Below are positions 7,801-42,251 of a stretch of 64,000 bases of DNA, piece after piece; position 1 is the first letter of the stretch, and every line of letters begins with the position of its first letter. Made by a program: the position numbers and the translations under genes. The DNA comes from Clavelina lepadiformis (taxonomy: Eukaryota; Chordata; Ascidiacea; Aplousobranchia; Clavelinidae). The DNA lies in contig NC_135246.1 in NCBI RefSeq assembly GCF_947623445.1, positions 16,289,856 through 16,353,855 on the forward strand, written 5' to 3'. The notes under the pieces were generated by a model that saw nothing but the letters and a program-made list of their open reading frames with translations, had not been told where the DNA came from and made no database searches.

Positions 7801-10800
7801 TCTGTGCTCGAGTTGCTCTTAATTGGCAAGATTATGAGGGTCGAACGGCTCTTCACTTTGCTGTCGCTCATGGCAACCTTCCTGTTGTTAAATATCTGCT
7901 TAATTTTGACGAGGAAGCGTGTGAAGTAAATCGTCTTGACCACACCTACCGCACCCCATTACACTGGGCAGCACAGCTAGGTATGACTTTTGTTTGTCTG
8001 ATTTCTATCCGTTGGTAAAGAACAACATGTTTTTGTGTATACACGCCATTGTTATTAGATAAGTGTTGTTTATCAACAATTTCTGTATATACTTGTATCA
8101 AATGTAAATTTTTTTCAATTCAGGCAATACAGAAATTGTAAAGTTGCTCCTGTCATTTGGTGCTAAGAACAAGATATCTGATGGCAATGGGGCCACACCA
8201 CTTTTGTATGCTGCTTTACATAACAAACCTGTAAGTGGTATATTGGAAATTATTGTGCTTATTCTTTATTTCAAAGCTTAATTTTGAATATATACCTTGC
8301 TGATTTATTGCATTGCTATGCTATAGCAGTTATCGTATTTCTATTGTCAACACTCATATTGAACAAATTCTCCACATCGTTTTATTAAGTTAAAAGTATT
8401 CAACTGGTGTTGTTTGTGCTGGTAAATCAAGTGCCACTTAGTGACGTTTATTTCTGATATTGCTATGTATTAAGCACTTGAATTCAATGAATAGTGGATA
8501 ATAAGTATGGAAATAATATGATTATTGTACTGCTTTGTTATTAAGCTATGGATGTACACTTTCCTTGACTTTACTTATTGACATGTAGCGGTATGTATTT
8601 GTATTGCAAAAATCTTTTTCCAAGTTTGGGTTTATTTTGTAACACTGCCCCAATGCCAGTAAATTCAAACAAGGGATTAATTTGTGTCAAAATTAAATTG
8701 TCGTGTTTCTAATAAATAGGAAGTTGTCATGGAAATGATGAAACATGATGCAAGCATTCTCGATCAATCTGACATTGAGGGACGAAATGCCCTAATGTGG
8801 GCTGCGGGAAAGGGAGCAAATGATGTCATACAAATGTTATTTAACCTGGGAAACTTAAATAAATCCACAGATGGCAACAGCGATGGTTCGTTGAATCTTC
8901 AGATTTATTCAACAGCATCCTCTGATATTTGTCATCTATAGGATTAATCTGCTTTTTCATAGGAGTTTACTTGTTTTAAGTGTCTTTAAAATTGATTGAC
9001 AGGCCAGTCCCAAGAAAATATCTCTCCAAAACTAAAAAAACAAGAGGCGATCATGATTGACATCAACAGGACTGACAACAAAGGCAACACTGGTGAGCGA
9101 CAGCTAAAAAGCCTTACTGAATATCACTGGTTTTATGAGTTGAAATATTAGCATTGTTTTTCTGACTCTTTCGTGAAAGAGACTGTGAAAAGTCTTTATT
9201 AGCTGAATTGATGGTGGTCGAAGTAGAAATGATTTAATCTAGTTTATCAGTGTTTAAGTGGCGTCGGTCATTTTTTTCTAGCTCTTCACATGGCTGCATG
9301 GAGTGGATGTGCGAGATCAGCCGAGCTCTTGCTACATTTTAACGCTCGCCACGATCTTCAGAATAACATGAACCACACACCCCTATTTGGTGCCTGTGAG
9401 AAGGTTAAGAGTTTCATTATTTATTTTAAACGGAACATTTGAACGACTCAAGTGGAGACTTTAAAGTGGTTTTTAATAATAAGTTTATTGAATCGATAAA
9501 ATAATCTCAGCTTATCCTCAACCTTTCTGCTTAATTATAGTTGTTTTTGTAGCTCCTCTAATGCTTCTTGTGGTTTAAGTTCAATATTACCACACGCTAG
9601 CACAATACATCCATCATCCATAAACTCTATCAACACAATTACTGCGAACAGTTTAAAATATTACGATTACACGATTACATACTTATTGCAATTTAGCGTT
9701 ATTTGCTTGTTTCAAAATTATAACACCTGATACACATTAAACAGGGACACATCAATGTGGTTAAACATCTTTTGGATTACAACGCGAGCATTTTCCTTCA
9801 CGACCAAGAAGAAAGGTCGCCTCTGCACTGGGCTGCCCTCGGAGGTCACGCTGAGATATGTGACCTACTCATCAAAAAAGGTAAATTATGAAGCTTTTGA
9901 ATACTAGATCATTAAATTCACTACATTTTTAGGTTTTTGTTATTATGCATTAGTTGTGCTATGATCCTGATCCCCCGAAACTTTTAAACCTTTCAAAGAA
10001 TGCTCTATCTGAAATAAACCGTTAATGTACAAGTTATACTGGTGTTGTGTTTACCATGTGAAGGACTATCATGCTTGATAGGTAAAATACCAGTAATCGC
10101 AAAACCACAATTTTATAACAGGAAATTGTTGTTTTAGATTTTCTGTTGGTTGTCAATACTGTATATTTAAGTGAATGATAGCTTATGCAAACACATTCAC
10201 CACAAAGCAGGATAGGTGTGTTGCATGCAGAGTTATGCGCAATTGTATTTTGGGGCAACGTTAATCATTTGTGCTTTTCATAATGAACAGAGTGAAGAGT
10301 ATAACAAGCCTTAGGAAAAGAAATATAGAAAAAGTAATAGATCTACCAATGGCAAACTATCTGGTATATATTATTGTTGCATTTTACAAATCTTTTTAGA
10401 TTTTGTCACATTGGCAAGCATTTTAATTGGGATGTTTACAAAAAAATCGTTGAGCTGGGAAATTCGCATAGTTCTTCCGCTATCAATGCTTTAATACCAA
10501 GTTGCTGCGGCTTGGTCAAATCTCAACGAGTCAGTTGTTGAACCTGACAAGGAAGGGGCACGAATACTCGACATTAAACCGTTTGAAAATGAAAATGGGA
10601 TTGGATATTACGAGCACATTCAATACTATTTTCCTTCTCGAATACCAAAACCTATACAGAAGTTGGCGAAAACCTTTCTACCTCGATCTTCAGCGTCACT
10701 AGATTTATTTGAGGATACCTGGGTGACGTTTCCATACATGCATTCTGTATTCAAAATGGAATGTTTTTTAAAGAATAAGATCAAATATGAAATAGACACA

Positions 10801-13800
10801 GTAGTTTTGCCAGATTCGGGGACATCAGATAATGTTCATAATCTGCCGGAAGAAGAATGGGAAGATGTGATAATAAAACATTTAGATATATGCGACGTTT
10901 TCTTTATGCCGCAACGAGTATAAATCTGAAAGTCCACTTGACTTTGTTTTGAAGAAAATTGATCGTGATCAACTTACTTCCACCTGGCTTGAAGATGCGA
11001 GAAAAAGTACTGGTGACTGTAGCAATCAGACATCGTATGTTTGTGTCTATAAACTCCTGAGGTTAGAGGTCAGCGTATGGGCAGTGCAGAGTTATATACA
11101 GAACCGTTTGTTGGAGAGACAGCTTGGCATCATCCTATCTTTTCATAGAAATCTTTATTGTTGGATGGATGAATGGACTGGTTTATCATTGAATGAAATT
11201 CTTGATAAACATCACGAAAAACTTTTTAAGGCCTAAAATGCTGAATTATTGTTCAAATATAGCGATTGGTTCGCAAATTTTGTTTACTGTGTGGACATGT
11301 CATCTATATAAATCAAACATTGTCCATACAAATACATTATAGAGCTGAACATAATTCCACATGGTCACTTTTTCCTTTAAAATGAGGTTTCAAACATACT
11401 GGTTTAATATTTTTCCTTGAGAAATATGCACTGATTATTTTATATAAACTTGTAAGTTGTTCTTTTTTGTGATTTATATACACTATTATATATAATTAGT
11501 AGTTTTTAAAAATGAAATTTTTTTCGTTGAGTTGATGTTTTGATGGACTCAATGTTCATGTTCAAGATGTCCCAAATGCTGTTTGTAAAGATGTCTTTCC
11601 TAGCGTCATACACTAAATTTTTGCTAAATCGTGTAGATTTTATGTTAGTTTTGCTTGACTAGGATCATAGAATTGACATGAAAGGTTCATTATAGGCACC
11701 AACTACAGCGTAGTTTGCCGTTACTGTATGTTTATAGGAAATTTATTCATGTACAGAAAACAATTGTTTGTGCCGACTTTGTAATTATGTTTGATTGCTA
11801 GGTTTAGATCCAGACTTACGAGATACTTACAAGCGTTCGCCGTTACTATGTGCTGCATTTGGTGGTTTTATCAATTGCATGAATCTTTTGCTGGAAAATA
11901 AAGCGAATGTTGATCTACAAGATCAAGAAGTAATTGATTTACCTTTTTTAATCTCAATTTTTATTGGTTGTTGCTCCAGCGGAGCTGGCATTGTATTTCC
12001 AATATTCAGCGAAGAACATTTCAACTAAACTGATTTTGTTGTAATGAGGCAATAACACAGTAACCTACATATGACCCTCAGCATTTCTAATTCAAACAAG
12101 TTTATTTTCATCACTTTAACTTTTTTTATGTCTTTAGGGGTTATCTGCATTACACTGGGCTGCGCAGTCTGGTCACCTTGATGCTACGAAGCTGCTCTTC
12201 CAATATTCTGCATTCCCAAATCCCATGGAGTATACAGAGGAGCGTTTGACTCCTCTCGACCATGCTCTTTTCAACGAGAGAGATGAGGTTGCCCAGTACC
12301 TTATCGAACAAGGTAATATCATCATGTCATGGCTTTTGTTTTGTAAAGCACTCAGTTGCCTAGTTTTTGTTGTTGTGTTATTTCCTCTTTTCGTCAGGTG
12401 CTTTGTCGTCTGAGACCATACGTCACATCGCTGCTGCTCAAATTCAAGCTTGCTTCAGAGGGCACCAGGTAGCTTAATGCTGCGAGCACCGAGAACATTT
12501 AAAATTTTTGCGGAATATAAATGCGTAAGGTATCAGAATATGTAGCGATGATATTTCTCTGTTAAGTAATTGCATGTTTTGCCCCAGGTGCGGAAAGAGT
12601 TCCTTCATCGCAAAGAATTTCTCGTTCGACACGAAAGGTTACGCAACAAAAGCAGGAAGGACAGGTGCCAGTGTGTTTTGATGTATAATAATATGTCATT
12701 GCGCCATGTATATTGGATGCTATGCAATATGTGTATTATCAATATTGATTTTGGAACTACTAGTGCATTAGTATCTTTTAGAAAAACGTTTTTTTTTTGA
12801 CAAACTTGGTCATTGCAAGGACACTAGAACTCAAACAAGTGCTGTACATTCAAAATTGAATAATAGAGGCACATTTTCTGCAGTGCAAAACTCTTTCTTA
12901 TTGATTCAGCTTCTTATATGTTAATACAGAAATCGTGGAAAGCACAAAATCCACTCCTCAATGGATCACCTTAACTCAGTTGGAGAGGAACCAACCCCGA
13001 CTACTCCAAACACAAACTCCATCTTGGCAGACAGTGTGTATTCAGGCGACGAATCTCGTGCGGACATTCTTGAAGAAAATTCTCTGCTTGTTAAAACAAT
13101 TCAGTCCACATCAGAACATTTGCTTCGTGTCAAGTACACAAGCGAAAAACCTGTCATCGAAACAAATGAGGGTTTGTTATTAGTGGATAAAATTAGAAAC
13201 GTTGAAGTAATGAAGAAACTGTTGTGTACCAATACAGCTGCTTTAAATATACCGTGTTTGATTTTTATCTAGTTTTTTTATTTACAGAATCTGATGGTGA
13301 TTCAGTAAAAGTCTGTGAGAAGAATGAAGACGAAACCAGCCCAGTTACTCAAACTTCGACATTTACAGCAGGTGATGTTGAACCAAAACGATCGGAAGAC
13401 AGTGGAATTGGCATCCAGGCTGAACCTGAAAACAATGAACGCGATGATGAAACTTATTCTCAAGACTTTGAAGAAGGCCAGCAAACTGAAGGTGAAGAAA
13501 CAAAGCACTTGAATGATGCTCCATCGGAAGGAAAGGCAGTAATCCCTGACTCCGCATCCGATAGAAGTGGTTCGAAATCACCAGGAAGTCCATCACCGAC
13601 AAATATAATGGATAGGGAAAAAGAGCCAACATTTGAAGATGACGCTTCTGAGAAGGATTGTAAACTTCAAGAGGATGAAAATGAAAAAAATAATGTTATT
13701 TTGGGGATAAGTAAAGAACCTCCACTGGAGAATGTCCAACGAGAAAATCAAACGTCATCAATAAAGAAATCAACTACTGAGGAAAGTCTTCCCAATCTCA

Positions 13801-18156: not shown

Positions 18157-21100
18157 TTAGTTGTCATCTGAAGAAGTGTTGCCGCAGCTCGTTCCTGTGA
18201 TGGAGCCGTAAGTTTCACTCCCTGAAGTACTTCTCACAGATTTTCTCATTTCATCCAGATGTAAGCGCCGATTTTCATTTTTAACAAAAATAAATAAAAC
18301 AGGGACAGAGAAGGTAAAACAGCCAAGCAGTATGTAATTTGCAAACGTCGGATCTGAAACAATTGGTCATATTGTTGAGTGGAGACATATTTCTAAATTT
18401 CCAAGTTATCACAATGTGCTCCTAATGAATTTATTTGAACAAAGAGACAGTCACTCTTATATAAACAGAACAGAACTTTTCATTCATAAATCACAGCAAC
18501 TAACTTATATGCGCAGTACCTGTGGCGTAACCTAGTGCCAAGAGAAAGAAGAATGATGAAATGTTGAAAAGCCAAACTAAAATAGAAGTGGATGTGCCTT
18601 CACTGACTGGGTAGGCTCCGTCAGCTGCCATTTCCATGCCCAAAGGAATAGCTGCATTTACTGCAATTCCCAGGATAATATTGGTTGCCCATATTTCGCC
18701 TGCAATGCTGAGAGGTGTTAGTTTTGAGTTAAAAATTTCAATCGTTGTCAAAATTTAACCTATTGTACCTTTCTGTGGTAAAAATGGAGTGAACTTTAGC
18801 CATTTATTTGTGATAATGATTAAATAGAGAAACATGATGAGCGCAAGTAAAAAAAGTATGCTGAGCATTATCTTCATCTTTCCTTTCAAGCGATCTGTAA
18901 ACCTGAAATTTAACATTTTATATTATAGTTTTAAAAAGTTGTCAATGATGAAAAGCTGTTTTACTTACCAGCCAACAACCATTCCAACACCACAACCTAC
19001 TAAAGTCATGATGAATCCAATTTCACCAGCTTCATCCTGTAAATTGTAGTTTTTGTGTAGGATAGATTATTCTCATTACAAAATGCTGATTTTAAATACA
19101 ATTTTTTCAAACTAACAGTTCTTTAAATAAACTTCTGTACTAAACGATTAGAATTGCTTAAATACTTTCAAATATTCTTTTATTATTCATACAAAAATAG
19201 AATCAAGTTGATAAAGGACATCTGTACCTGAGATACATTAAGAGGTTGAACTATAAGTGGCATGACACCAGTCCATGCCCCCCAGGTACCAAGAGTTAAG
19301 GCCAGGACCAAAGCTATAAAATTATACTGGCGATTTTTGCTGACATTTTTCAAACCTGCCTAAAAAAGGTAATTTTGCTATTAAACTTTCATGTGTTTCT
19401 GTACATAATTTATTTCTTGATAAAACTGTTGCACTACTATGTATACTCACTTTAAAATCCATCCGCTCCACAGATGCAGACAGGCTGGGTGGAAGTGGAG
19501 GATGTCGTGGAAAATATGCGAAAATGGCCAGAAAAATAACCACAGCGATTCCAAATTCAACATAAAGAACATTTTGGATGTCTCTTCTGTCAAGCATCAA
19601 CAATTATTTATGTTAAATCCTGATTACAGGGTAAAACTGAATACGCACTTTTAAAAATTTAAAATTGTTCAACATTTTTAAATTTCAGATTTAAAATTTG
19701 ATGTAACCTTATTTGAATAACTTCGTAACAAGTGTCATTCTTGGTCAAATTTTGAAGAACATGCTGGAAGCATGATGCATTAACGACATCCTTTGAAGGA
19801 GATTTAACCAAATCGCCAATAATATATGCCGTGCCAGTTCCTATAGCAAGACAATGAAAAACTGTAACAATATATGTAATAAGTCTATGATTGATAAACT
19901 TCCATTAATATTTACTAACCCATATAATTTAATAGTGTTGATATACTTGTCGCCGTAATCCTTTCATTTGGTGGAAACCATGTATTTGATAAAAGTGGTG
20001 GTGCGGCCATTACGACACATCCACCAATTCCATTTAAAAAATGAGCAAAATGAATAAAACTGCAAACAAAAGATGTTCTATTTTCACCGTTCCGTTGTTT
20101 TATTGTTGGCGTTGAAACTAAAGATAGATCCAAACTTTATTAACTTACTATTTTATGATATTAACATGCAAGGGAAAACATCGAATTCCTGCTCCGATTG
20201 CTACAAACAATGCTGTTGAAACACAAGCAACCCTAAGTCCTTTTTGATCCAAGATCCACATATAAATTGGCATTGATACAATAAAAGCAATGGGTCCCCA
20301 GTTCGTTAGTAACTCAATGTCAACTGAATAGAAAACAACAAAATGTTGGACACTAAATTTTGGCAGAATAGTCTGTTGTACATAACATAGTTTTGATAAT
20401 TGGAAGTAGCCAAGACGGCCAAGACAGCTTGGTAGCCAAGTGTTCGAGAGCTGGGCTTGCAATAATGCAGCCCATGTTCTGATTTTTGATACCTTGTGGT
20501 ACTACCGTAAGATTGCCCATGGCAAGGCATTAATGACGCTTGCTTTTGTTCAGTGGTTCTAATGAACAGTTCCTAGTTCATGTAATCCAATAAAAAAATA
20601 CAAATAAAAAATGAGCATCAGTTGGAATTTGAACAACGACTAACTTGGTAATCGAGGCTCGAGTGATGAGGAATCATTGCTAACTTTAATTTGTGCAAAG
20701 ACTTTCCTCAGTCCAAGGATAAAGATTATGATACCATACCATCACTAATATTAATTAAATAGGGTTTTTAGCGAATGTAAAACAAAATGCCTTTAGTACT
20801 GGTAGATCGTTAAGAATAGTTGCGAATAGTAAAAAATATCTTACAAGATGTGAAACCATAAGCTACTTTTGCAGAGTCGGCTATAGGAGACCAAGTGTTC
20901 CAAATACATCCTTGCAACCAACCCATAAAAGAAAATATAAGACAAATGTACCAGCGATACCAATAAGTTTGACAACGAACATAGACAGTAGATGGAGCAA
21001 TTTCTTCGCTTTCATCGTCAGAATATTTTGGAAAGGAAGTCACACCATCATCTTGTGTTTTGAACTTTAAACAGAAAGCAACATAAACATGTTTGTTAGT

Positions 21101-21229
21101 TAATAAACGCAATATTTAATCTCGAATAACATGTAACAAACTTACATTTGTTGCTGATATTGGAACATTATTAAGTGATGGCTGGGATTCATATGATTTG
21201 CTCGAAATCAATGCTGTCTTTTCATCCAT
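18157..21229 (-). CDS. SLC49A4/DIRC2-like MFS transporter, copy A
   Basis: Twelve-helix major-facilitator protein of the SLC49 family; vertebrate SLC49A4 (DIRC2) is lysosomal and has been reported to export pyridoxine. Exons on the minus strand: 21229-21146, 21064-20845, 20323-20149, 20059-19920, 19840-19708, 19586-19451, 19359-19228, 19036-18969, 18902-18769, 18699-18520, 18353-18157. All phases fit, giving 532 residues (human 478). Family words: WNTWSPI, TNWGPIAF, TWFPPNERITAT, YFPRHPPLPPSL, FTDRLKGKMK. The N-terminus DEKTALI holds an acidic dileucine-type sorting signal (ExxxLI), fitting lysosomal targeting. A predicted luminal loop in exon 5 has N-glycosylation sequons (NAS, NLT, NDT) and two cysteines. 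A SINE sits in the intron between exons 2 and 3. Substrate is inferred from family only. Confidence 0.9.
20400..20610 (+). mobile_element. tRNA-like SINE, copy in transporter A intron
   Basis: This is homologous to 28038-28232, at the same intronic position in copy B. The shared body starts around GCTTGCAATAATGCAG and runs to an A-rich tail with AATACAAATAAA. In this copy the A-box region is degraded and carries a short insertion. Its presence in both transporter copies means it inserted before the duplication. Confidence 0.65.
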
Positions 21230-21904
21230 TTTGTTTTATTTATTATCTAGATATAGAATAGACATTCATCCTAATACTCTGATAAACACACATACATCTG
21301 ACAGAGAATTATAGACTCATACTTATCCACAGATCCTGATTTGACAAGACCTTCAAATAAGTTCTAAAGAAATCTTTGACAAATTACCAAAAGCAAACTG
21401 CTAATCGAAAGCTTCCTTAACTTCTAATGTAGAAATATATTACTTATCTTAATATCAGAAATATATTACTTTGAAGCTGCTAAATAAATATTAATACCAA
21501 GCTAGAACTACTCGGCGTGCTGGCTTAATGAAACATTGATTAATACATGACCTTTGCACCCAGCACAAGTTGATTTAACATGGTGTTTGCATTTATTGTT
21601 TACATTGCAAGTTCCTTGCCTGCAAAGCAATAGGTGTAATAGGTTAGGTAATTTGAGAAGCTATATTGGGTTACATAAAGAATTTTAACAAATATTATTT
21701 TCACAGCATCAAGTGGAACATAAAACCGTGTGAAATGGCAAAAATGCAAGTAACAACCAAATATTGCTGATTATGAATAAGCTCTTTAAAACCATTCTGT
21801 CAAAAAGATGGTGACAAGTTTAATAGTGTCAAAACTCTAAACCTGCTGCATAATTTTGTTCTAGCCAAGGTTTTTGCAATTTGTCATACAACTTTTAGAT
21901 AAAA

Positions 21905-22790
21905 GTAAAGATAACCTTAAAACTCATTCTTTCTGTTGTAGTAGACAAGCTTGGTGGAAGTGGAGGGGAACTTGGATAATAAACCAATATAGTAAGAAAC
22001 ATATTAACAGTCGCAGCGCACTCAGCATACATAATTTCCTTTCTACAAAGAGCAACAGAAATTATGACAACACAACAATCTCATTTAATGTTGTTACTTA
22101 ACTCACAACAAACACAATAAAAACCAAAAAAGGTTACATTTATAGAAAAGCGCTTTTTGCAATTTGCAGTATGTATAAAAAGCACAATACATATAAAAAC
22201 TCCCGGTACAAATGATAACCTGATTTCATTGATTTTGTTGCAGGACTTATTGCTGCTGAACATTTCCATGTCAAAGCAATTTATGTTTAAAGACTCATTC
22301 AAAGGTGCTTTGAAAAACTTTCCTACAACATAACTGCCACTAGCACTTGTTTAAAACTTTTGTAATTTATATTGAGCAAGACATAAATAGCATGAACAAA
22401 ATAAGCACATATCATGATAATAAAAGTCAAAGACAATGAAACTGATGACCAATTTAAAAATTAGTTTACATTTATAGCTTATCATATGCCACAATTATGC
22501 ACCTATACATGCTCTACAAAATATTGAATCAACTGTTTTCAGAATTTAGTCAACAAAGCAATTATACATATAAAACACATTAAATACAAAATGCAAGTGA
22601 TAAAACTACCAGTGATCAACTAAAAAAATATTGAAAAATCCTACCATGTAACTAAATGAAGTGGATATAGCAGTCGCTGTAATTCTTTCACTGGGTGGAA
22701 ACTACTTCTTTGATAAAAGTGTCGGAGCTATGGCAATAAAGCAACGTCCGATGCCGTTCAAAAACTGACTCACATATATCAGGCTACAAA
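21905..22790 (-). pseudogene. Relic of a fourth SLC49A4-like transporter
   Basis: Three decayed exons lie in the right order on the minus strand. The segment at 22788-22642 matches exon 4 of the array (FPPSERITATAIS), with a stop codon (complement of 22702-22704) replacing the conserved Trp. The segment at 22350-22250 matches exon 5. The segment at 22050-21905 matches exon 6 (SPPLPPSLS). The remaining exons are not recognisable. Some words, such as GACAAGCTTGG and the exon 6 start RKEIM, are closer to copy C than to A or B, so the parent was probably a C-like gene. It cannot encode a transporter. Confidence 0.8.
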
Positions 22791-24020
22791 CAATATCTTT
22801 GAAAATTTAACTGCCAAAAAATATTTCATTGTTTGAGAATTGATAAAGTTTAATATGTTAACTAGTTCAGCTCTGGCAGAACTACATATGATTGTGCTTG
22901 GACAATGAACATGATAAGAAGAGTTCATTAATGCAAACTTGGTTTTGTTATCATATACATGTACCTGACAAAGCAAGTTTAAGCTTGCAAAAGCCTGCAT
23001 TAGTATATAAAGTTTAACCTCTTACGTGTTACCATATTTTACTTTTGTTTTCATTATTTGTATGACGGTTTATGTAATTCTGCCAACATATATTTATTAT
23101 ATTTTAAGTTTCAACTCCAATTTACATCAAACTGTCCTTATGCTTTCGATAAATCATATGTTCACAACCACTAGTGTGTTAACTTGATATTTTCAATATC
23201 AGCTATTTTAAATGAATTATTATGTACACAAAATGATTGTTTACTGGTGATAATACAGAGCAGCATACTTGTGACTATTTCCTGTTGTCAAGCCTTGAAA
23301 TTAGGTTGTATAATTTCCTACATTTCAGGTAGTATGTCATAACATTGGTTCAGACTAACACCATTCAAAACCAAACATCAAGCACAAAACTTAAACAGTA
23401 CCATAACATTGGGTTTTCAGCGAACATCATGAAACACACAAAAATATTGTCCTGGTATCATAATGTATTTAAAACTTATCCATAAAGAAACTGATCACTG
23501 GTGTTAATGAGGTGGATTAGTGATTTTTTATATGTCTTGGTGTTGTCAAGAAAAGTGTTTTCAATTGGTTAAGCATTTTATTTGGTTCAACTTAATTTGC
23601 ATTGCGTCTTTTTTCTTAAGTTGATAAAAGGTTTCCGTATAAACTTCCAATATAAATTTGTTAAATTACATTTATGTTGTTTGACTGACTGTTTAGTTGG
23701 ACCCTGGTGTATCAATGCAATCAAGCCGAATATACTGTAATGGTGTCTGTTATAAATGATCTGGATATAAATATATTGTGATAACATACCATACAGTGGC
23801 CAATACGGTCTTATGCCATAGCTTCAAGTTCAAACCAAATGTTTGCAAAAGCCCAAGCTTCACATTTATTCAACTTTTCTGAGCAGAGTCGCATTTTAAT
23901 TAGTATAGTAAAACATATAATGCTTCATCCAACACAAAACAGAGCACAAACGGTACAGTTGAATTCATCACAGCTTTTTGATAGCTCTGTGCCTAACGAT
24001 TAAATTTCAGGATTTAGCAA
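22791..24020. other. Non-coding remainder of duplication unit 1
   Basis: A/T-rich DNA without recognisable exons. From about 23215 to 24020 it matches 29180-29963 in unit 2, while 22510-23215 has no counterpart there. No RNA gene or element boundary is visible. Confidence 0.5.
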
Positions 24021-24098
24021 ATGTCATCAGCGTTAAATTCTGGCCGAAAGGGAAATTCTACTCGATTTTCATATAACATACAAAGTGCCAATTTTTAA
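24021..24098 (+). pseudogene. Duplicated fragment of the last inversin exon
   Basis: This is the duplicate of 16391-16468 with the inversin stop codon (TAA at 24096-24098). The splice acceptor and the first 14 bases of the exon are missing because the duplication breakpoint falls within the exon. It is therefore a coding remnant carried along with the duplication. Confidence 0.9.
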
Positions 24099-25787
24099 GT
24101 CTGATCATTGATCACAATAATTCTAAACTACTAATCTAATGGTGCTACGTTTCTGTAATTATTTTCAGGCAATAATTTTGTTTTACTAAAGCATTTCTGT
24201 GTATGTTCACTACTTTTTAATGTTCTGCTTATATGTTTAAGCGTCGAATCATGCAATAAGCTACTTCTCTGTTTCGTATTTTGTGTTTTTATCACATGTG
24301 TTTAATATAACTACACCGTGCTCAAACTTCAATATTATTTTCCACACATGCCCAACTTACATTAAAACTCAGTAGCAGTTGCTACGATTCATGCCATTGC
24401 ACCACAAGAACTGTGGTTCCAGATACTTGCTTACTTCTGTATTTGCATTGCATTTGTTTGTTGTAATTTTGATATGACAACAATTTCCTGAGGGGAAATT
24501 TGTTGATGATTAAGTATTGTCTTTATCAAAGTTATCTATAAACTGTGAACCTTTTCTTGCCTTGTGAATTAATTTTCTTTCAAATATAGTTCTATTTTTT
24601 ATATTAAGAAGTAATTTGATACAGTAGTGATCCTAGAACGGTTCTAAAAAAGGGCATAACATTTGTCCAAATTGACATGCCAGGTGGTGCACCACAGACC
24701 TGGTCCATTATTTATATTTTGCTGAAAAAATGCCACTTTTACTTGTTTGCTTTTACTTGACAGAAACAGGAAAATCAGAACATTTTACATTAAAGTTAAA
24801 AATAATCCGAAGAAAATTTACTATTAATGTACAACCAATACAATAAGACATAAACCTATGAAACCACACATGGAGTAAAATCACAAGCGATTCTCTCAGA
24901 ATCATCAATAGGATACCAATTTTCGAAATCTAACTTTTTTCTTCGTCTCTTAAGTTTATTCTACTGTACTGTCCAGGAATTAAACATTCAATCATGTTCA
25001 TATCTGTTATGTTACACAGATATACAATTTGATAATAATCGCTGAATTAAAGTATGTTACCGTACTGGAAACAGATTTTAATTTTTGTACTCGAAGTAGG
25101 AAAATGTCTTCACTTCTGTACTACAGCGTTTTTTGAAATCAGCAAAAGTTGATTTGGGACACAATATTTCTCTTCCTAATCTTTGGTATGATCAGTATTA
25201 CACAACCCAACAAATTAATCGCTGCTAAATAGATATCCAATCATTAGCTTTAATCTGAACTCTTTCATCTGCATCTAGTTCTAGGTTAACTTGGCAAACA
25301 GAAAATATGCTTACTCAACGTCACGCATACCAGTCGTGTATATTGTAGCTGATTCTTTAATGTGAAAATTTCTGTTTTTTGTTTAAAAAACTCTAATTGC
25401 CAGAGAATATAGTCATGCCTTTATCAAGATTACTTAAACCGTGATTTTTTTTTTTACTTTTGTAATAAAATATTACCCACATTCATAAATGCTTTTAAAA
25501 TCTGAATAAATTGAAATGTAATAACTAATAAGTAACACAAATAAACACTGAAATGGCAACAAGCATGATCCTACCTCAACCTCTGCATGACAATCAGAAG
25601 TCAGATGATGGAATTCCAACAAAAAAATTAATACATTCAGATATTATTTAGTTAAGTATGAAAATGTACCAGAACTTATTGTGTTGATGTAAGTATTCAG
25701 GCAATTTTGAACTTATTCCAGTCATATTATTCTGGATATAAAAATGAGCCTCCACTGACAAGCTAAGCGGCATAAAGTATAGTAGTG
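24099..25787. other. Intergenic stretch, duplicate of 16469-18156
   Basis: A non-coding copy of the inversin-transporter intergenic region. Substitutions and small indels relative to unit 1 are visible, for example the loss of some bases near 24625. No new feature is seen. Confidence 0.6.
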
Positions 25788-28700
25788 TTAGTTGTCATGT
25801 GAAGAAGTGTGGCCGCCGCTCGTTCCTGTGATGGAGCCGTAAGTTTCACTCCCTGAAGTACTTCTCACAGATTTTCTCATTTCATCCAGATGTAAGCGCC
25901 GATTTTCATTTTTAACAAAAATAAATAAAACAGGGACAGAGAAGGCAAAACAGCCAAGCAGTATGTAATTTGCAAACGTCGGATCTGAAACAATTGGTCA
26001 TATTGTTGAGTGCAGACATATTTCTGAATTTACAAGTTATCACAATGTGCTCCTAATGAATTTATCGAAACAAAGAGACAGTCACTCTTATATAAACAGA
26101 ACAGAACTTTTCATTGATAAATCAAAACAACTAACTTATATGCGCAGTACCTGTGGCGTAACCTAGTGCCAAGAGTAAGAAGAATGATGAAATGTTGAAA
26201 AGCCAAACTAAAATGGAAGTGGATATGCTTTCACTGACTGGGTAGGCTCTGTCAGCTGCCATTTCCATACCCAAAGGAATGGCTGCATTTACTGCAATTC
26301 CCAGGATAATATTGGTTGCCCAAATTTCGCCTGCAATGCTGAGAGGTGTTAGTTTTGAGTTAAAAATTTCAATCGTTGTCAAAATTTAACCTATTATACC
26401 TTTCTGCGGTAAAAATGGAGTGAACTTTAGCCATTTATTTGTGATAATGATTAAATAGAGAAACATGATGAGCGCAAGTGAAAAAAGTATGCTGAGCATT
26501 ATCTTCATCTTTCCTTTCAAGCGATCTGTTATCCTGAAATTTGACATTTTATATTATAGTTTTAAAAAGTTGTCAATGATGAAAAGCTGTTTTACTTACC
26601 AGCCAACAACCATTCCAACACCACAACCTACTAAAGTCATGATGAATCCAATTTCACCAGCTTCATCCTGTAAATTGTAGTTTTTGTGTAGGATAGATTA
26701 TTCTTGTTACAAAATGCTGATTTTAAATACAAATTTTTCAAATTAAAAGTTTTGTAAATAAACTTCTGTACTAAACGATTAGAATTGCTTAAATACTTTC
26801 AACTTTTCTTTTATTATTCATACAAAAATAGAATCAAGTTGATAAAGGACATCTGTACCTGAGATACATTAAGAGGTTGAACTATAAGTGGCATGACACC
26901 AGTCCATGCCCCCCAGGTACCAAGAGTTAAGGCCAGGACCAAAGCTATAAAATTATACTGGCGATTTTTGCTGACATTTTTCAAACCTGCCTAAAAAAGG
27001 TAATTTTGCTATTAAACTTTCATGTGTTTCTGTACATAATTTATTTCTTGATAAAACTGTTGCACTACTATGTATACTCACTTTAAAATCCATCCGCTCC
27101 ACAGATGCAGACAGGCTGGGTGGAAGTGGAGGATGTCGTGGAAAATATGCGAAAATGGCCAGAAAAATAACCACAGCGATTCCAAATTCAACATAAAGAA
27201 CATTTTGGATGTCTCTTCTGTCAAGCATCAACAATTATTTATGTTAAATCCTGATTACAGGGTAAAACTGAATACGCACTTTTAAAAATTTAAAATTGTT
27301 CAACATTTTTAAATTTCAGATTTAAAATTTGATGTAACCTTATTTGAATAACTTCGTAACAAGTGTCATTCTTGGTCAAATTTTGAAGAACATGCTGGAA
27401 GCATGATGCATTAACGACATCCTTTGAAGGAGATTTAACCAAATCGCCAATAATATATGCCGTGCCAGTTCCTATAGCAAGACAATGAAAAACTGTAACA
27501 ATATTTGTAATAAGTCTATCAACGATAAACTTCCATTAATATTTACTAACCCATATAATTTAATAGTGTTGATATACTTGTCGCCGTAATCCTTTCATTT
27601 GGTGGAAACCATGTACTAGATAAAAGTGGTGGTGCGGCCATTACGACACATCCACCAATTCCATTTAAAAAATGAGCAAAATGAATAAAACTGCAAACAC
27701 AAGATTTTCTATTTACAACGTTTCATTGTTTTATCGTTGGCTTTGAAACTAAAGATATATCTAGACTTTATTAACTTACTATTTTATGATATTAACATGC
27801 AAGGGAAAACATCGAATTCCTGCTCCGATTGCTACAAACAATGCTGTTGAAACACACGCAACCCTAAGTCCTTTTTGATCCAAGATCCACATATAAATTG
27901 GCATTGATACAATAAAAGCAATGGGTCCCCAGTTCGTTAGTAACTCAATGTCAACTGAATAGAAAACAACAAAATGTTGGACACTAAAATTTGGCAGAAT
28001 AGTCTGTTGTACATAACATAGTTTTGATAATTGATTTGTCGTCTCGGTAGCCGAGTGGTTAGAGCGCTGAGCTTGCAATAATGCAGCCCATGTTCTGATG
28101 TTTGATACCTTGTAGTGCTACCGTAAGATTGCCCATGGCAAAGCATTAATGACGCTTGCTCCTGTTCATTGGTTTTAATGAATAGTTTCTAATTCATGCA
28201 ATCCAATAAAATAAATTAGAAAATACAAATAAAAAACAGCATCAGTTGGAATTTAAACAACGACTAACTTGGTAATCGAGGCTCGAGTGATGAGGAATCA
28301 TTGCTAACTTTAATTTGTGCAAAGAATTTCCTCAGTCCAAGGATAAAGATTATGATACCATACCATCACTAATATTAATTAATAGGGTTTTCAGCGAATG
28401 TAACACAAAATGCCTTTAGTACTGGTAGATCGTTAATAGTTGCAAATAGTAAAAAATATCTTACAAGGTGTAAAACCATAAGCTACTTTTGCAGAGTCGG
28501 CTATAGGAGACCAAGTGTTCCAAATACATCCTTGCAACCAACCCATGAAAGAAAATATAAGACAAATGTACCAGCGATACCAATAAGTTTGACAACGAAC
28601 ATAGACAGTAGATGGAGCAATTTCTTCGCTTTCGTCGTCAGAGTATTTTGGAAAGTAAGTCAAATCATCATCTTGTGTTTTGAACTTTAAACAGGAAGCA

Positions 28701-28849
28701 ACATAAACATGTTTGTTAGTTAATAAACGCAATATTTAATCTCAAATAACATGTAACAAACTTACATTTTTTGCTGATATTGGAACACTATGAAGTGAAG
28801 GCTGGGATTCATATGATTTGTTCGAAATCAATGCTGTCTTTTCCTCCAT
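25788..28849 (-). CDS. SLC49A4/DIRC2-like MFS transporter, copy B
   Basis: Near-identical tandem duplicate of copy A. Exons on the minus strand: 28849-28766, 28684-28465, 27954-27780, 27690-27551, 27471-27339, 27217-27082, 26990-26859, 26667-26600, 26533-26400, 26330-26151, 25984-25788. Splice sites and phases equal those of A, and the reading frame is open to a TAA, giving 532 residues. Differences from A include EEKTALI at the N-terminus (sorting signal retained), WITDRL for WFTDRL, SSTWF for SNTWF, ADRAYPVSES for ADGAYPVSEG, and a changed C-terminal tail (GGHTSSHDN). Exons 5-7 and their introns are identical to A. Role: predicted lysosomal small-molecule exporter, by family only. No disabling change was found, so it is probably functional. 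Confidence 0.9.
28038..28232 (+). mobile_element. tRNA-like SINE, copy in transporter B intron
   Basis: The 5' part resembles a tRNA: GGTAGCCGAGTGGTTAGAGC acts as an A-box-like block, followed by a degenerate B-box (GATGTTTGATACC). After it come a non-tRNA body and an A-rich tail with repeated AATAAA-like units. The better preserved A-box here than in the A copy helps to identify the class. Parent tRNA not assigned; the block looks most like a Ser/Leu-type D arm, but that is a guess. Confidence 0.72.
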
Positions 28850-28872
28850 TTTATTTTATTCTGATTTCATTG

Positions 28873-28975
28873 CAGGACATTTCCACGTCAAAGCAATTTG
28901 TGTTTAAAGACTCATTCAAAGGTGCTTTGAAAAACTTTCCTACAACACAACTGCCACCAGCACTTGTTTAAAACT
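28873..28975 (-). pseudogene. Exon 5 remnant of the relic transporter, unit 2
   Basis: Duplicate of the exon 5-like piece at 22250-22350 in unit 1, sharing ACTCATTCAAAGGTGCTTTG. The neighbouring exon 4-like and exon 6-like pieces of unit 1 are deleted here. It lies just upstream of copy B's start codon, so it may now form part of that gene's 5' flank. Confidence 0.7.
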
Positions 28976-30855
28976 TTTGTAATTTATATTGAGCAAGACA
29001 GAAATAGCATGAACAAAATAAGCACATATCATGATAATAAAAGTCGAAGACAATGAAACTGATAAGCAATTTAAATTTTTTTTTACATTTATTACTTGTT
29101 GTTTATCATATGCCACAATTATGCACCTATCATTTATCACACCTATACACCAATATCAACTAATTGACATGAACTATAATATACACAAAATGATGGTTAC
29201 CGGTGATAACACAGAGCATCATACTAGTGACTATTTCCTGTTGTCAAGCCTTGAAATTAGGTTGTATAATTTCCTACATTTCAGGTAGTATGTCATAACG
29301 TTGTCAGACTAACACCATTCAAAACCAAACATCAAGCACAAAACTTAAACAGTACCATAACGTTGGATTTTCAGTGAACATCATGAAATACAAAAAAATA
29401 TTGTCCTGGTATTATGATGTAATTAAAACTTATCCATAAAGGAAGTGATCACTGGTGTTAATGAAGTTTTATTTGCCTTGGTGTCGTCAAGAAAAGTGTT
29501 TTTAATTGGTTAAGCATTTTATTTGGTTCAACTTTATTTGCATTGTGTCTTTTTTTCTTAGAGTTGCCCTATGCTTTCTATATAAACTTCCACTATAAAT
29601 TTGTTAAATTTACATTTATGCTTTTTGACCGACTGTTTAGTTGGACCCTGGTGTACGAATGCAATCAAGCCGAATATAATGGTGTCAGTTATGAATGATC
29701 TGGATATAAATATATTGTGATAACATACGATGCAGTTGCCAATATGGTCTTCTGCCATAGCTTCAAGTTCAAACCAAATGTTTGCAAAAGCCCAAGCTTC
29801 ACATTTATTCAACTTTGCTGAGCAGAGTCGCATTTTAATCAGTATAGTAAAACATATAATGCTTCATCCAACAAAAATCATAGCACAAACGGTACAGTTG
29901 AATTCATCACAGCTTTTTGATAGTTCTGTGCCGAATGGTTTAATTTCAAGATTTAGCAAATGGCGCATAAAAAACACAGGGCACCCTCAAAGTCTTAACA
30001 TAATTTATAGCAATCTACGTTTCAAATTTTCTTAAGACTTAGAGAACGCCCTCTATATAGCAAGTACTAGGCAAATAACTATAACACTGGACACTTTTCA
30101 AGATGAAAGAAGGCACATCACAGCAATAACGCTTTTGATTGCAAGAAAGGAATAATTTTAAATTGTGAAAACTGCATAAACTGTGAAATAATTTAACGCT
30201 AATCGGACATTGCAATCATTAAAAAAACAGTTATCAGTTAATAAACAACTGAAGGGCAGAGCTGAAGTCAGAAACAAAAAGGACAATAATATAATTAGCA
30301 ATATTTAAAGTTTACGGAATGGAAATCTATAGAAAAAACACCCTATGAGCCGTATCAATCAAAGCATATTTGGCATTAGGATTAACAACTGGGACTACCA
30401 AGAAAAAGTGGAAAACACAAACTTAAGAAATTAACATTTCCACATTAAAGATTTTTATGTATTATTTATATTATTTTTATTTATATTATTTTTGTTTTTT
30501 TTTATATTTAACCATCATCTTACAAAACGAAAAAATTGCACTGTAAAAGTTAAAGCAAAAGATTAGTAACCATTGAACAAGAATTGAACAATATAATAAA
30601 ATGCCAGAAAAAAAGAAACTAAATCGTCATGAAAAAATATGCATTTCCTTCATAGAAGTATAGAAGGATGACAATAAACTGAAACATAGATGTATATACC
30701 AAACAAATTCTCATGTGATAGGATCTTGTACCCTTCAAATGTTCAAATACGGTATTTACAATAAATTAAGTTTTTCATTTTTAAAAAAGATTCCAACAAA
30801 TAGAGTATCAGAATGAAAAGAGTTTCAAATTCCTTATGTTTGATTTAGTAATTAG
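28976..30855. other. Intergenic between transporter copies B and C
   Basis: Up to 29963 this is the right part of duplication unit 2. Beyond that lies single-copy A/T-rich DNA, including a TTTAT-rich low-complexity run at about 30460-30510. No exon is recognised. Confidence 0.6.
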
Positions 30856-33800
30856 TTATGCATGTGCTGCTTCATCTTTTAAAGAGCAACTGCTGTCAAA
30901 TGATCCATAAGGTGACGATAAAGTGGATGGTGAGATTGACTTCCTCTGCACATCAAGTTCTAAACGGCGATTTTCTTCTTTGGTGAACAATATCAGCAAT
31001 GGAAGACCGATAGCATATGATCCAAGCATGATATAATTTGCAAAAGTGGGGTCTGCAATAAAAGATTATTGCAAAAAAAATATAAAATTTTCTTATTTGA
31101 AAGACACTGAAAATAGACGTTTGCCTGGTCCTCTTAAAGAGGTTGAGCTATTCAAAATAGACGACGCTTCACATACCATACATATGAACCTAACAGTAAA
31201 ATTACAACTGCAATCACCAGGAGAAAAATTTAATCCGAGAAGAAAGAAAAATGAAGAGATGTTAAGCAACCAAACCAGGATGGAAGTTGACGTTCCTTCC
31301 CCAACAGGATAAGCAGCATCTGCAGCCATCTCCATTGCTATTGGAACACTTGCATTCGACAGAATCCCAAGGATAATACAAGCCGCCCAGATTACACCTA
31401 AAATAAGACAAGATGGAAAACAAAACTGAAAATGCCTTTGTTCCGATAGATACTTCCAGAGTGAGATGATACAGACTTGATCGCTTTATGCATCACATAT
31501 TTTATCTCATAAGCATGTACGTCAACAAAGACTACTTCACAGATCCTGAAAATAAGCTGTAAATACCACTTTGGGGCAGAAATGGAACAAAGTGGAGCCA
31601 TTGATTGTTAACTATGACAAAATAAATGAACATTATTAGGGTCAGAGCAAAAAGAACCACAAGCGTTCGCTTCATTTTTCCTTTTAGTCGATCGGTGATC
31701 CTAAATGATGGTAATAAATGTATATAAATCAAAATGCAATCATACTATGCAAATTTCTTAAGAAAACCATATCTTAAGTGTGAGATTACAATCTACATTT
31801 GCCTACATCTCCTTGCTACATACCATCCAACAAACATGCCAACCACACAGCCAGACAGTGACATAAAGAATCCAATATTTCCAGCTTCTTTCTGCAAAAT
31901 AAAACCAAAACTCAAAAAGCATTAGCTTTGTTTACTCAATGCATATTTGTTTAAATATTTCAGGGCATGCAACCTGAATGTAAGTGATATCAAAGCAACA
32001 CAACAGCCACCAACTTGCGACAATATAGTTCATGAAAGTACCTGAGTCACATGAAGCGGATCCAAAATGAGAGTCATGACACCCGTCCATCCACCCCAGA
32101 AACCCTGGGTCAGTCCAGCAACAAGTGCCACAACCAAGTACCGCTTGTTACGGATGACTATTTTTAAACCAGCCTGACAATAAACCAATATGTTAGTCTC
32201 TATATATGATAAATTTGTGAACATTTTAACTGGGCATTTTTGAGCGGCTTCATACATAAATTTAGTAACATTGTAAAAACAAGTTATTGCGAATTTTTTT
32301 TACCTTTAAATCCATTCTTTCACAAGAAGCAGACAAGCTTGGCGGCAAAGGGGGACGTTTTGGAAAATATATGAGCATAGCAAGGAAAACGAATACAGCA
32401 ATACCACATTCCACATACAAGACATTCATAATTTCCTTTCTGGTATTTAATAAGAATCGATAGTGCTTATTAGTAAGGTTACTATCATTTTAATAGATTA
32501 ATTGTAACTTAGTAACGTAAAAAAGGCATGTTATTGTTATAGAATTCTCATTATCAGTCCTTTGATAAAAAGAAAGTGTGTGATTTCAAACCTAATTTCT
32601 CTGACTTCAGCACAAGAGTCATTGTGCTTTAAAGATTTGGTATCGAAGCAAGACAGATTTGAAGATCTATTGGATGGTGCTTTAACATATTCTGCAACTA
32701 TATATCCGCCACCAGTTCCTGAATGGTGACAAGCATATCAGTCTTTGAAACAATAACAGACCAAAAAACTTTATGCAGTTAGTATTGGTCTAGCTGGGAC
32801 ATATATCCCAACTCACCTAAATAATTGAATAAAGTTGATAAACCAGTTGCCGTGATTCTTTCATTTGGAGGGAACCAGGTATTTGATAAAAGTGGAGGGG
32901 TTGCCATGACAACACAACCGCCCATTCCATTAAAAAATTGGCCCAGATGCATCAGGCTGTAAAAATTCTGCAAGTTTTATTTTCACATTTTTCACACAGT
33001 TATTTCTTTCACACAATTAAAAGTTTCAAAAGCTGAATAGAGCCTAAGTGGTTATACATGAAAAGTACACTATTTCAACATGAACGCCATAAGTATTAAA
33101 GTGCAAAGCATTGTAGCGTCTTGGCCATATCACTTCATAGTACAGAAGTTCTTACTACTTCATAACTTGTAATTGAAAAGGCAGGCATCGAACAGCTGTT
33201 CCAAGTGCAACAAGAAAGGCGGTGGATAAGCAAGAAACTCGAAGACCCTTCTCTTCAAGAAGCCAAGCAAAAAATGGCATTGAAACAATGAATGATATTG
33301 GTCCCCAGTTTGTGAGAAGTTCTATATCGCCTTGGATCATAACATTTTGTTAAACTGGTTTTGTTCATAAATATAAAACATATTTAGAACCTTTGTGGAT
33401 CAAACTTCTAAAAACAAATACTGGTACAGCATATATAAAGACAAAGAAGGTACATTACGATGCATAACAGACCTTTTTCAACAGTGGTTGGCTACGTTAA
33501 AATAGAGAGGCATGATTGTCTTATTATCCGTGACAACAATGTAGCACAGAAATATTTTTGTTAATTGCTACATTAAAATGTTGCAAATAGCACAAGAGCA
33601 GATGCGTTTATGTAATGTTTCTCATAGTATATATACTCCAACAAAGAACTAACTATTAAGTCTGAAACATATAAGTGTTTGGAAATATTATATGAATGCA
33701 TTTGCTCTTGTTTTGCTATTTACAGCAATTGTTTGGCATAACAAGTCTATTTTAACTCTCCTCAAGTTATATTGATTTGTTGATTGCAAAATGTTTGATG

Positions 33801-34786
33801 ATTAGATTGTTCTTTTAATTTGGTGAGCACCACACAGCTTCTTGCATCCGCAGCAATTAAAACTAGTAATATACTTAAGTAAATTATTTGCTTAACTTTT
33901 AATAGCACTTTAAACTCCACCTACAATTGCGCCAAACTTTACATAAGTTTTAAAACACACCTTCAGCTCAAAGAGAGATGACCTAAAAAGATGTGTACAT
34001 ATACTGTATAACTAGTTCATTAAAATAATTATTTTTAGAGAAACTTCAAGAAACCCTATGCTACACACCAAGTTAAAACATTTAGGAATTAGTGGTGAAA
34101 CATTTTGAATTAATTAAAATTAAGAACTTTACAGCACTCCTTTGTCTCAGATAGGTTAGAGAACATTGTGAGTGACTGTTGTGAATGGACGAATGGTCTA
34201 TTGTGGATGCTATTTATGACAAATATTATATAGGTAATAGTCTGCCTACATGTCTATTGTAAAATATGTACCGCTTATGCAATAGCACAACTGCAAAATA
34301 ATGTTATTCAGATGGCTGGACTGTGTTTAAATTTCTTTTATAATAATCACAAAATACATAAACTCTTACCAGAAGTGAACCCATACACTGCCTTTGCTGA
34401 AGTATCGATTGGAGACCAAGTGTTCCATATGGCACCTTGCAAGAATCCCAATAATGAAAAGATAAGGCATATGTACCATCGATACCAGTATGTTTGACAT
34501 TTCACATATACTGAAGACAAATGTTGGTTTTTATTTTCATCGATGCTGCCATACGACGGTGGTGGGGATGTAGTTTCTTCAGAATTTGCAATGTTGTGGT
34601 TTATAGGCAAAACATTATCCTGCAAAACAGTTATATTGCTCATCAGAAATTTCTTATAATGAAGCTCATACAAGTGACAGCAAGATTGAGCCAACTTTAA
34701 GTATCGTGCACCTTTCTTGATACTGCTGTATCGCCATCACTTTCACAAGGGTTTGGGTCATAATGGAGCAGTGGAGATGATTCCAT
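30856..34786 (-). CDS. SLC49A4/DIRC2-like MFS transporter, copy C
   Basis: A more diverged paralogue with the same exon plan. Exons on the minus strand: 34786-34712, 34619-34370, 33330-33156, 32956-32817, 32718-32592, 32439-32304, 32173-32042, 31891-31824, 31700-31567, 31397-31218, 31052-30856. The phases join to 537 residues. Family words: WNTWSPIDTSAKAVYGFTSG, TWFPPNERITATGL, YFPKRPPLPPSL, WITDRLKGKMK. The N-terminus MESSPLL contains a textbook ExxxLL lysosomal sorting signal, similar in type to those of A and B although the surrounding residues differ. The exon 5 luminal loop carries sequons NRS, NLS and NDS and two cysteines. It lies outside the segmental duplication and has larger introns (about 1 kb between exons 2 and 3). 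Family is secure; substrate and cell type are inferred. Confidence 0.9.
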
Positions 34787-41606: not shown

Positions 41607-42251
41607 ATGAACGGCCTAACAGTTTTGTTGTTAAGTTGTACGCTCTCTTGTACCCTAAGTCTTCCGTTGAAGGACAAAGGAAACGACAACGACAACGACG
41701 TTGCGTTTTTGCTAGATTTGCTCAAAGGAGGTTTTCTGGACAACGCCAACTTAAACGATCAAATAGAAGACTCTTGGCCGGCTAAGGTAGATGAAGAAGC
41801 AAATAGTCAGAAAAACGATGCTGGCAAATTTCAAAATCTCGGATACGGACAAATCGGGAGCTACGGGTACCGCCCGGGAAGCAAGAATATTGACCAGCAA
41901 TGGCGAAACGACGAGAAAACGGAAGAGGAATACGCGGCAATGGATGGCGAAGATCACCAACTTTCAGACAACGACATTGCTGCTCTTCACAACTTCTACA
42001 AAGCAGTAGTTGGCGAAGATGCGGTTCAAAAACCTGTTCCGCGGCAGCACTGGAGCTACGGCATGCGGCCAGGTGGAAAACGGAGCATTCCTGATTTTGA
42101 CGGACACGCCATAAGCAAGCGGCAACACTGGAGCAAGGGTTATTCACCTGGAGGAAAACGAAGCTTTGGGAACACGGAGAGGGTTAAAAGATCAGGTGGA
42201 ATGAAGGAGGAAGTCTATCCTGTGGAACAGCCGAAGCCGAATAATAAATAA
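41607..42251 (+). CDS. Gonadotropin-releasing hormone (GnRH) precursor
   Basis: A single-exon prepropeptide of 214 residues, secreted from neurons; products would act on GnRH receptors. A hydrophobic signal peptide covers about residues 1-18 (LTVLLLSCTLSCTLS). Two complete decapeptides follow. Residues 147-156 read QHWSYGMRPG, preceded by Arg and followed by GKR. Residues 173-182 read QHWSKGYSPG, preceded by KR and followed by GKR. Gln would become pyroglutamate, and the Gly after each peptide would donate the amide. A third, decayed copy at 82-91 (QIGSYGYRPG, followed by SK) lacks His-Trp, a dibasic site and the amidation Gly. From memory, Ciona gnrh1 also encodes three GnRHs, ending with the same QHWSKGYSPG (tGnRH-6), so this is probably its orthologue. 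Start choice: first ATG, directly before the signal peptide. Confidence 0.95.
   Translation: MNGLTVLLLSCTLSCTLSLPLKDKGNDNDNDVAFLLDLLKGGFLDNANLNDQIEDSWPAKVDEEANSQKNDAGKFQNLGYGQIGSYGYRPGSKNIDQQWRNDEKTEEEYAAMDGEDHQLSDNDIAALHNFYKAVVGEDAVQKPVPRQHWSYGMRPGGKRSIPDFDGHAISKRQHWSKGYSPGGKRSFGNTERVKRSGGMKEEVYPVEQPKPNNK

What the first reader, a model, noticed from the sequence alone, without database searches (positions are those of the whole stretch)
42045..42074. Tunicate GnRH decapeptide one residue from vertebrate GnRH1
The precursor encodes QHWSYGMRPG followed by GKR. Vertebrate GnRH1 is QHWSYGLRPG, so only position 7 differs (Met for Leu). The Ciona tunicate GnRHs I remember differ from GnRH1 at three or more positions in the 5-8 region. 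Tyr5-Gly6 and Arg8, important for vertebrate receptor binding, are all present. It is either a retained ancestral chordate form or a striking convergence.
Basis: partly seen in the sequence, partly recalled or inferred. Interest (0 to 1): 0.85.

Follow-up and report, generated by a model that had tools for sequence, protein, structure and literature searches.

The report
Sea-squirt GnRH precursor, vertebrate-like peptide
A sea squirt gene encodes a relative of the human fertility hormone GnRH that differs from it by one building block; it is a genuine new member of a known hormone family, but the likeness is probably part inheritance and part coincidence.

Summary
Window 42045-42074 (+) encodes QHWSYGMRPG followed by GKR, inside an intact 214-aa GnRH precursor (41607-42251; Pfam GnRH, E 2.6e-5). 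Contig lengths identify the genome as the sea squirt Clavelina lepadiformis, chromosome 7. The precursor also carries QHWSKGYSPG-GKR, identical to Ciona tGnRH-6, and a decayed third copy, QIGSYGYRPGSK, which the finding does not mention. A second gene on chromosome 8 encodes QHWSVKLSPG. I read this as the counterpart of Ciona gnrh1.

Three of 11 published tunicate GnRHs compared differ from GnRH1 at two positions, and salmonid GnRH1 has Met7. Tyr5-Gly6 looks ancestral to chordates. Arg8 is unresolved: parsimony gives Ser8 for the tunicate ancestor in 3 of 4 set-ups, by one step, and Arg8 in the fourth. Six Clavelina GnRH receptor genes keep three known ligand-binding residues (one gene lacks one), but none has an acid at 7.32 or Tyr6.58, the mammalian contacts for Arg8 and Tyr5. 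I favour inherited Tyr5-Gly6 plus convergent Arg8. New member of a known kind.

The parts
41607..42251 (+). GnRH precursor gene (gnrh1-like), coding region in one exon, 214 aa plus stop
   Evidence: open frame; Pfam GnRH; whole-precursor search of the genome finds only itself, a search too coarse to find the second GnRH gene
41607..41666 (+). probable signal peptide (first ~20 residues)
   Evidence: hydropathy; cleavage point not predicted by a dedicated program
41850..41885 (+). decayed third GnRH copy QIGSYGYRPGSK: lacks His2-Trp3, flanking cleavage sites and the amidation Gly
   Evidence: BLOSUM62 score 39 to copy 2, reached by 0 of 20000 shuffles of the precursor without its first 20 residues and the two intact copies; score 32 to copy 3, reached by 16 of 20000
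42042..42044 (+). single Arg, N-terminal cleavage site of the reported peptide
   Evidence: sequence; monobasic, unlike KR of copy 3
42045..42074 (+). reported decapeptide QHWSYGMRPG
42075..42083 (+). GKR: amidation donor Gly and dibasic cleavage site
42117..42122 (+). KR cleavage site before the second decapeptide
42123..42152 (+). second decapeptide QHWSKGYSPG, identical to Ciona tGnRH-6
   Evidence: PMC7697785 Table 1
42153..42161 (+). GKR after the second decapeptide

Best explanation
This is the Clavelina lepadiformis gnrh1 gene, the counterpart of Ciona gnrh1. The precursor enters the secretory pathway, convertases cut at R|QHWSYGMRPG|GKR and KR|QHWSKGYSPG|GKR, Gln1 cyclises, and the Gly after Pro-Gly supplies the C-terminal amide. 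Two neuropeptides result: tGnRH-6 itself and a new form, pQHWSYGMRPG-amide. They act as neuropeptides directly on tunicate GnRH receptors (six candidate genes on chromosome 4), as in Ciona, where tGnRHs act on gamete release and metamorphosis. The vertebrate-like centre is a mosaic: Tyr5-Gly6 inherited from the chordate ancestor, Met7 its own, Arg8 most likely gained (or regained) in the Clavelina line before or while copies 1 and 2 were homogenised. Shown here: gene, peptides as encoded, decayed copy, second gene, receptor residues. Inferred: processing, secretion, receptor action, direction of change at position 8.
For: Frame, Pfam hit and pattern count with empty control. Copy 3 identical to tGnRH-6. 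Decayed copy with the same SYGxRPG centre, so Arg8 occurs in two of three copies. Tyr5 and Gly6 ancestral in 4 of 4 set-ups; Ser8 at the tunicate ancestor in 3 of 4. Receptors: Asp2.61 6 of 6, Asn2.65 5 of 6, Lys3.32 6 of 6, but acidic 7.32 0 of 6 and Tyr6.58 0 of 6 (table, from the translations and the junctions). Roles of 7.32 and 6.58 from passages of PMC5662886; the three ligand-binding residues from a table of PMC3500703.
Against: No transcript or mass-spectrometry evidence could be seen. The N-terminal cleavage site of the reported peptide is a single Arg. Parsimony puts Arg8 at the vertebrate-tunicate ancestor in 4 of 4 set-ups and at the tunicate ancestor in set-up C (Tyr-type copies only, vertebrates represented by GnRH1), and sea urchin GnRH also ends in RPG-amide. 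Glu7.33 in two of six receptors, or Asp7.31 in one, could in principle bind Arg8 instead of an acid at 7.32. Some vertebrate receptors also lack that acid (PPS, SQS, PHF).
Confidence: 0.62

Rival explanations
1. The whole centre Tyr5-Gly6-x-Arg8 is a retained chordate ancestral GnRH; Ciona and Halocynthia lost Arg8.
For: Arg8 in two of three Clavelina copies, in vertebrate GnRH1 and in sea urchin GnRH; parsimony places Arg at the vertebrate-tunicate ancestor in 4 of 4 set-ups and at the tunicate ancestor in set-up C.
Against: With all tunicate copies the tunicate ancestor is Ser8 (set-ups A, B and D, each one step better than Arg). Amphioxus GnRH as identified in 2023 has Ala8. None of the six receptors has an acid at 7.32.
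Confidence: 0.28
2. The peptide is encoded but not made or not used: copy 2 follows copy 1 into decay, and tGnRH-6 is the working product.
For: Copy 1 has decayed; copy 2 has only a monobasic upstream site.
Against: Copy 2 keeps all canonical residues (QHWS, PG, GKR) despite synonymous differences from copy 3 (codons).
Confidence: 0.1
3. Chance reading frame or contamination by vertebrate DNA.
For: None found; it was the null to exclude.
Against: Copy 3 is identical to a peptide that the published table lists from Ciona, the gene lies inside a 20.4-Mb contig, and the pattern has zero control hits.
Confidence: 0.01

Closest known systems
Ciona intestinalis Ci-gnrh1 (tGnRH-3, -5, -6)
   Same: Several GnRH copies per precursor; one copy, QHWSKGYSPG, identical
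   Different: The other Ciona copies are YEFM and YEYM at positions 5-8; here YGMR and a decayed YGYR
Halocynthia roretzi tGnRH-10 and -11
   Same: QHWSYGF(S/L)PG share Tyr5-Gly6 and differ from GnRH1 at two positions
   Different: Phe7 and Ser8/Leu8 instead of Met7-Arg8
Vertebrate GnRH1 (QHWSYGLRPG)
   Same: Nine of ten residues
   Different: Met7; several copies in one coding exon, against single-copy vertebrate precursors and three exons stated for deuterostome GnRH genes (figure legend)
Salmonid GnRH1 (QHWSYGMNPG; whitefish, Atlantic salmon, river trout)
   Same: Shares Met7; nine of ten residues
   Different: Asn8
Amphioxus GnRH (YSYSYGFAP-amide)
   Same: Ser4-Tyr5-Gly6 and Pro9
   Different: No pGlu, Phe7, Ala8, no Gly10; its authors say the mature peptide awaits mass spectrometry

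Membership tests
Tunicate GnRH family | Decapeptide with QHWS at the start and PG plus amidation Gly at the end | tested here: met
Tunicate GnRH family | Precursor with a signal peptide | tested here: met
   hydropathy only
Tunicate GnRH family | Several GnRH copies in one precursor | tested here: met
   two intact copies and one decayed
Tunicate GnRH family | Dibasic cleavage on both sides of each copy | tested here: inconclusive
   GKR after both; KR before copy 3 but single Arg before copy 2
Tunicate GnRH family | Match to the curated GnRH profile | tested here: met
   PF00446 24.6 bits, cut-off 18.5
Tunicate GnRH family | GnRH receptors in the same genome | tested here: met
   six loci on chromosome 4; joined pieces of two of the six were compared with the PDB and both find GnRHR first
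Tunicate GnRH family | Processed amidated peptide in the animal | not testable with these tools
   needs mass spectrometry
Vertebrate GnRH1 (as a direct counterpart) | Sequence QHWSYGLRPG | tested here: not met
   one of ten residues differs
Vertebrate GnRH1 (as a direct counterpart) | Single copy per precursor, gene of three exons | tested here: not met
   two intact and one decayed copy in one coding exon; non-coding exons not examined; norm
Vertebrate GnRH1 (as a direct counterpart) | Receptor with an acidic residue at 7.32 to pair with Arg8 | tested here: not met
   0 of 6 receptor genes; some vertebrate receptors also lack it (PPS, SQS, PHF)
Vertebrate GnRH1 (as a direct counterpart) | Shared neighbouring genes | tested here: inconclusive
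   10 of 236 window frames of 60 aa or more were scanned, 3 of 10 over a Pfam cut-off: two ankyrin, one PITP; vertebrate GNRH1 neighbours only recalled

The most novel reading that the evidence does not exclude
The chordate ancestor's GnRH already had the centre Tyr5-Gly6-x-Arg8 of human GnRH1, and Clavelina is the one tunicate among those compared that kept it, in two copies of one precursor, while its receptors changed the contacts that mammals use to read it.
Probability: 0.28. Interest if true: 0.6.

Novelty: new member of a known kind. Interest (0 to 1): 0.36.

Why it matters
[quoted passage not shown] A tunicate peptide one residue from human GnRH1, with a decayed sister copy that carries the same Arg8, and a receptor set that lacks the mammalian contacts for Arg8 and Tyr5, gives a concrete system for asking whether peptide and receptor changed together. 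It also adds an aplousobranch: the urochordate peptides in the two review tables that I saw (PMC5592718, PMC7697785) come from Chelyosoma, Ciona and Halocynthia only.

Tried and rejected
The Pfam GnRH profile searched over the genome found nothing, and its 14 control genomes gave nothing either, so that result was not used. A first pattern with the wrong spacing gave 9 chance hits with 7 in the control and was dropped. A one-mismatch search added two sites to the three known. The one on C3 reads RHWWKYFPPGGN without a cleavage site; the one on C6 has TGA in frame and His where the Pro of PGG should stand (read by eye). Both rejected as chance. Further GnRH copies around the second gene (9.9 kb, L020): none beyond the one known.

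Receptors: 12 of the 24 hits fall in the six chromosome-4 loci; the other 12 lack the TM2-TM3 GnRHR motif in their fetched stretch. Of those 12 only L022 was looked at further and is somatostatin/angiotensin-like. A pattern scan for TM6 was wrongly spaced: it found none of the six TM6 exons and one spurious site in L049; the TM6 residues in the report were read from the translations. Exon ends for the 7.31-7.33 triplets were chosen so that the spacing to TM7 equals that of the human receptor, then checked for splice signals.

Shared gene order with vertebrate GNRH1: nothing usable. No structure prediction was run. Paper searches that gave nothing used in the argument: (215 papers, 25 listed); (3,300 papers, 12 listed) led to PMC10321317. 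PMC4923880 and PMC3407064 were seen in passages and not relied on. A published table (PMC5592718 Table 1) prints tGnRH-1 as QHWSYGLRPG, identical to human GnRH1; PMC7697785 Table 1 gives QHWSDYFKPG. I treat the former as a misprint; the original paper was not seen.

Full report
What is there. Window 41607-42251 (+) is one uninterrupted coding frame of 214 codons plus stop. It begins with a hydrophobic stretch and matches the Pfam GnRH profile above its curated cut-off (24.6 against 18.5 bits, E 2.6e-5). The reported decapeptide QHWSYGMRPG is at 42045-42074, followed by GKR. A second decapeptide, QHWSKGYSPG, is at 42123-42152, followed by GKR to 42161. It is letter for letter Ciona tGnRH-6, a ligand of Ci-GnRHR-1 and -2 (PMC7697785, passages and Table 1).

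Which animal. The genome as held has 209.06 Mb in 95 contigs; its first nine contigs are 28.78, 26.53, 25.73, 25.07, 24.62, 20.77, 20.45, 19.51 and 15.73 Mb. The genome note of Clavelina lepadiformis (PMC10884593, passages) lists 28.79, 26.54, 25.74, 25.07, 24.62, 20.77, 20.45, 19.51 and 15.73 Mb, 210.1 Mb in 102 scaffolds. The small differences (0.01 Mb in three chromosomes, about 1 Mb in total) are unexplained, but nine lengths in the same order leave little doubt. The window lies on chromosome 7. Clavelina belongs to Aplousobranchia. A search for papers with both 'Clavelina' and 'gonadotropin-releasing hormone' gave 2 papers; I saw only their listing, and neither title concerns GnRH peptides. 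The exact peptide string is in no held paper. Neither search covers sequence databases or subscription papers.

A third, decayed copy. At 41850-41885 the same precursor reads QIGSYGYRPGSK. Against copy 2 it scores 39 (BLOSUM62), reached by 0 of 20000 shuffles of the precursor without its first 20 residues and the two intact copies; against copy 3 it scores 32, reached by 16 of 20000. It has lost His2-Trp3, has no dibasic sites beside it and has Ser where the amidation Gly should be, so it can hardly yield a GnRH. It keeps Tyr5-Gly6 and Arg8. The precursor therefore probably once had three working copies, as Ciona gnrh1 has, and Arg8 occurs in two of the three. Ciona shows the same grouping: two Tyr5 copies sharing residues 6 and 8 (YEFM, YEYM) and one tGnRH-6. 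The order of the copies in the Ciona gene was not checked.

A second gene. The pattern QHW-five codons-PGG occurs 3 times in the genome, with 0 in the reversed control: twice here and once at chromosome 8:17071114. The latter lies in a frame of 130 residues from its ATG, with a hydrophobic start, and reads KR-QHWSVKLSPG-GKR. It is two residues from tGnRH-7, -8 and -9, and tGnRH-7 and -8 are Ciona gnrh2 products. It has one copy; four relaxed patterns found no other in 9.9 kb around it. A GTAAGT near the end of the frame suggests a further exon, which was not followed.

How unusual is the reported peptide. Of 11 published tunicate decapeptides, three (tGnRH-7, -10, -11) differ from human GnRH1 at two positions, six at three and two at four (the longer Ci-GnRH-X was left out). 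The new one differs at one. If positions 5-8 are drawn independently from the published tunicate columns, a one-residue difference comes up in 2.3 to 4.5% of draws, depending on the pseudocount. It is a record among those compared, not an outlier. Met7 is known in vertebrates: whitefish, Atlantic salmon and river trout GnRH1 is QHWSYGMNPG (PMC10700215, passages).

Retained or convergent. I used residues 5-8 of tunicate, vertebrate, amphioxus (YSYSYGFAP-amide, PMC10321317, passages), sea urchin and starfish peptides in four parsimony set-ups. Tyr5 and Gly6 are ancestral in 4 of 4, for both the tunicate and the vertebrate-tunicate ancestor. Position 7 is Phe or ambiguous, never Met. For position 8 the vertebrate-tunicate ancestor is Arg in 4 of 4, which counts for retention; the tunicate ancestor is Ser in three (A, B, D; Arg costs one step more) and Arg in one (C; Tyr-type copies only, vertebrates represented by GnRH1). 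The trees were assumed, not inferred, and the site changes often, so this is weak. My reading is inherited Tyr5-Gly6 and a gained or regained Arg8, at roughly two to one.

Receptors. Joined pieces of two of the six were compared with solved structures; both find GnRH receptors first (E 4e-29 against 9.8e-12 for the next family; 1.7e-18 against 5e-6). Across the six, Asp2.61 and Lys3.32 are present in 6 of 6 and Asn2.65 in 5 of 6; these are listed as ligand-binding residues in PMC3500703 (table), and that they read the two ends of the peptide is recalled. An acid at 7.32 is present in 0 of 6: the 7.31-7.33 triplets are PAP, GVL, DVV, PAE, PHT, PAE. The junctions have AG acceptors in 6 of 6 and as donors GTAAGT in three and GTAGGT, GTTAGT and GTGATT in the others. 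Tyr6.58 is present in 0 of 6 (Asp 3, His 2, Leu 1). In mammals Asp7.32 is thought to pair with Arg8 and Tyr6.58 with Tyr5 (PMC5662886, passages). Vertebrate receptors vary at the triplet too: SDP, SEP, PEY, PPS, SQS, PEA, PHF. So the ends of the peptide are probably read as in vertebrates, and the vertebrate-like centre is probably not read as in mammals. Asp6.58 in three receptors could pair with Lys5 of tGnRH-6; this is a guess. Receptors may have been missed.

Caution on processing. The reported peptide is preceded by a single Arg (KPVPR), not KR. Cleavage there is plausible but unproved, and no transcript or peptide data could be seen.

Verdict. A genuine tunicate GnRH gene with a new decapeptide, the closest tunicate match to GnRH1 among those compared. 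New member of a known kind. The added findings are the decayed copy, the tGnRH-6 identity, the second gene and the receptor set.

Noticed in passing
L045-L050 (chromosome 4: 4.96-4.98, 5.54-5.62 and 15.80 Mb): Six GnRH-receptor-like genes; position 7.49 is His in 5 of 6 and Gln in 1, where the human receptor has Asp.
   Followed up: partly
L013 1315-1707; chromosome 8 about 17.071 Mb: Second GnRH gene with one copy, QHWSVKLSPG-GKR, and a likely splice donor near the end of the frame.
   Followed up: partly
window 20151-34736 (-): Very similar frames, transporter-like by eye, repeated two to three times (20151 and 27782; 20813, 28436 and 34350), suggesting a tandem duplicated gene; the frame at 20151 and a neighbour at 31096 gave no Pfam match.
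   Followed up: no
window 7005-7677 and 10495-10920 (+): Ankyrin-repeat exons and a phosphatidylinositol transfer protein exon (PF02121, E 6.5e-22) upstream of the GnRH gene.
   Followed up: partly
PMC5592718 Table 1: tGnRH-1 is printed as QHWSYGLRPG, at odds with QHWSDYFKPG in PMC7697785; taken at face value it would make a Chelyosoma peptide identical to human GnRH1.
   Followed up: partly
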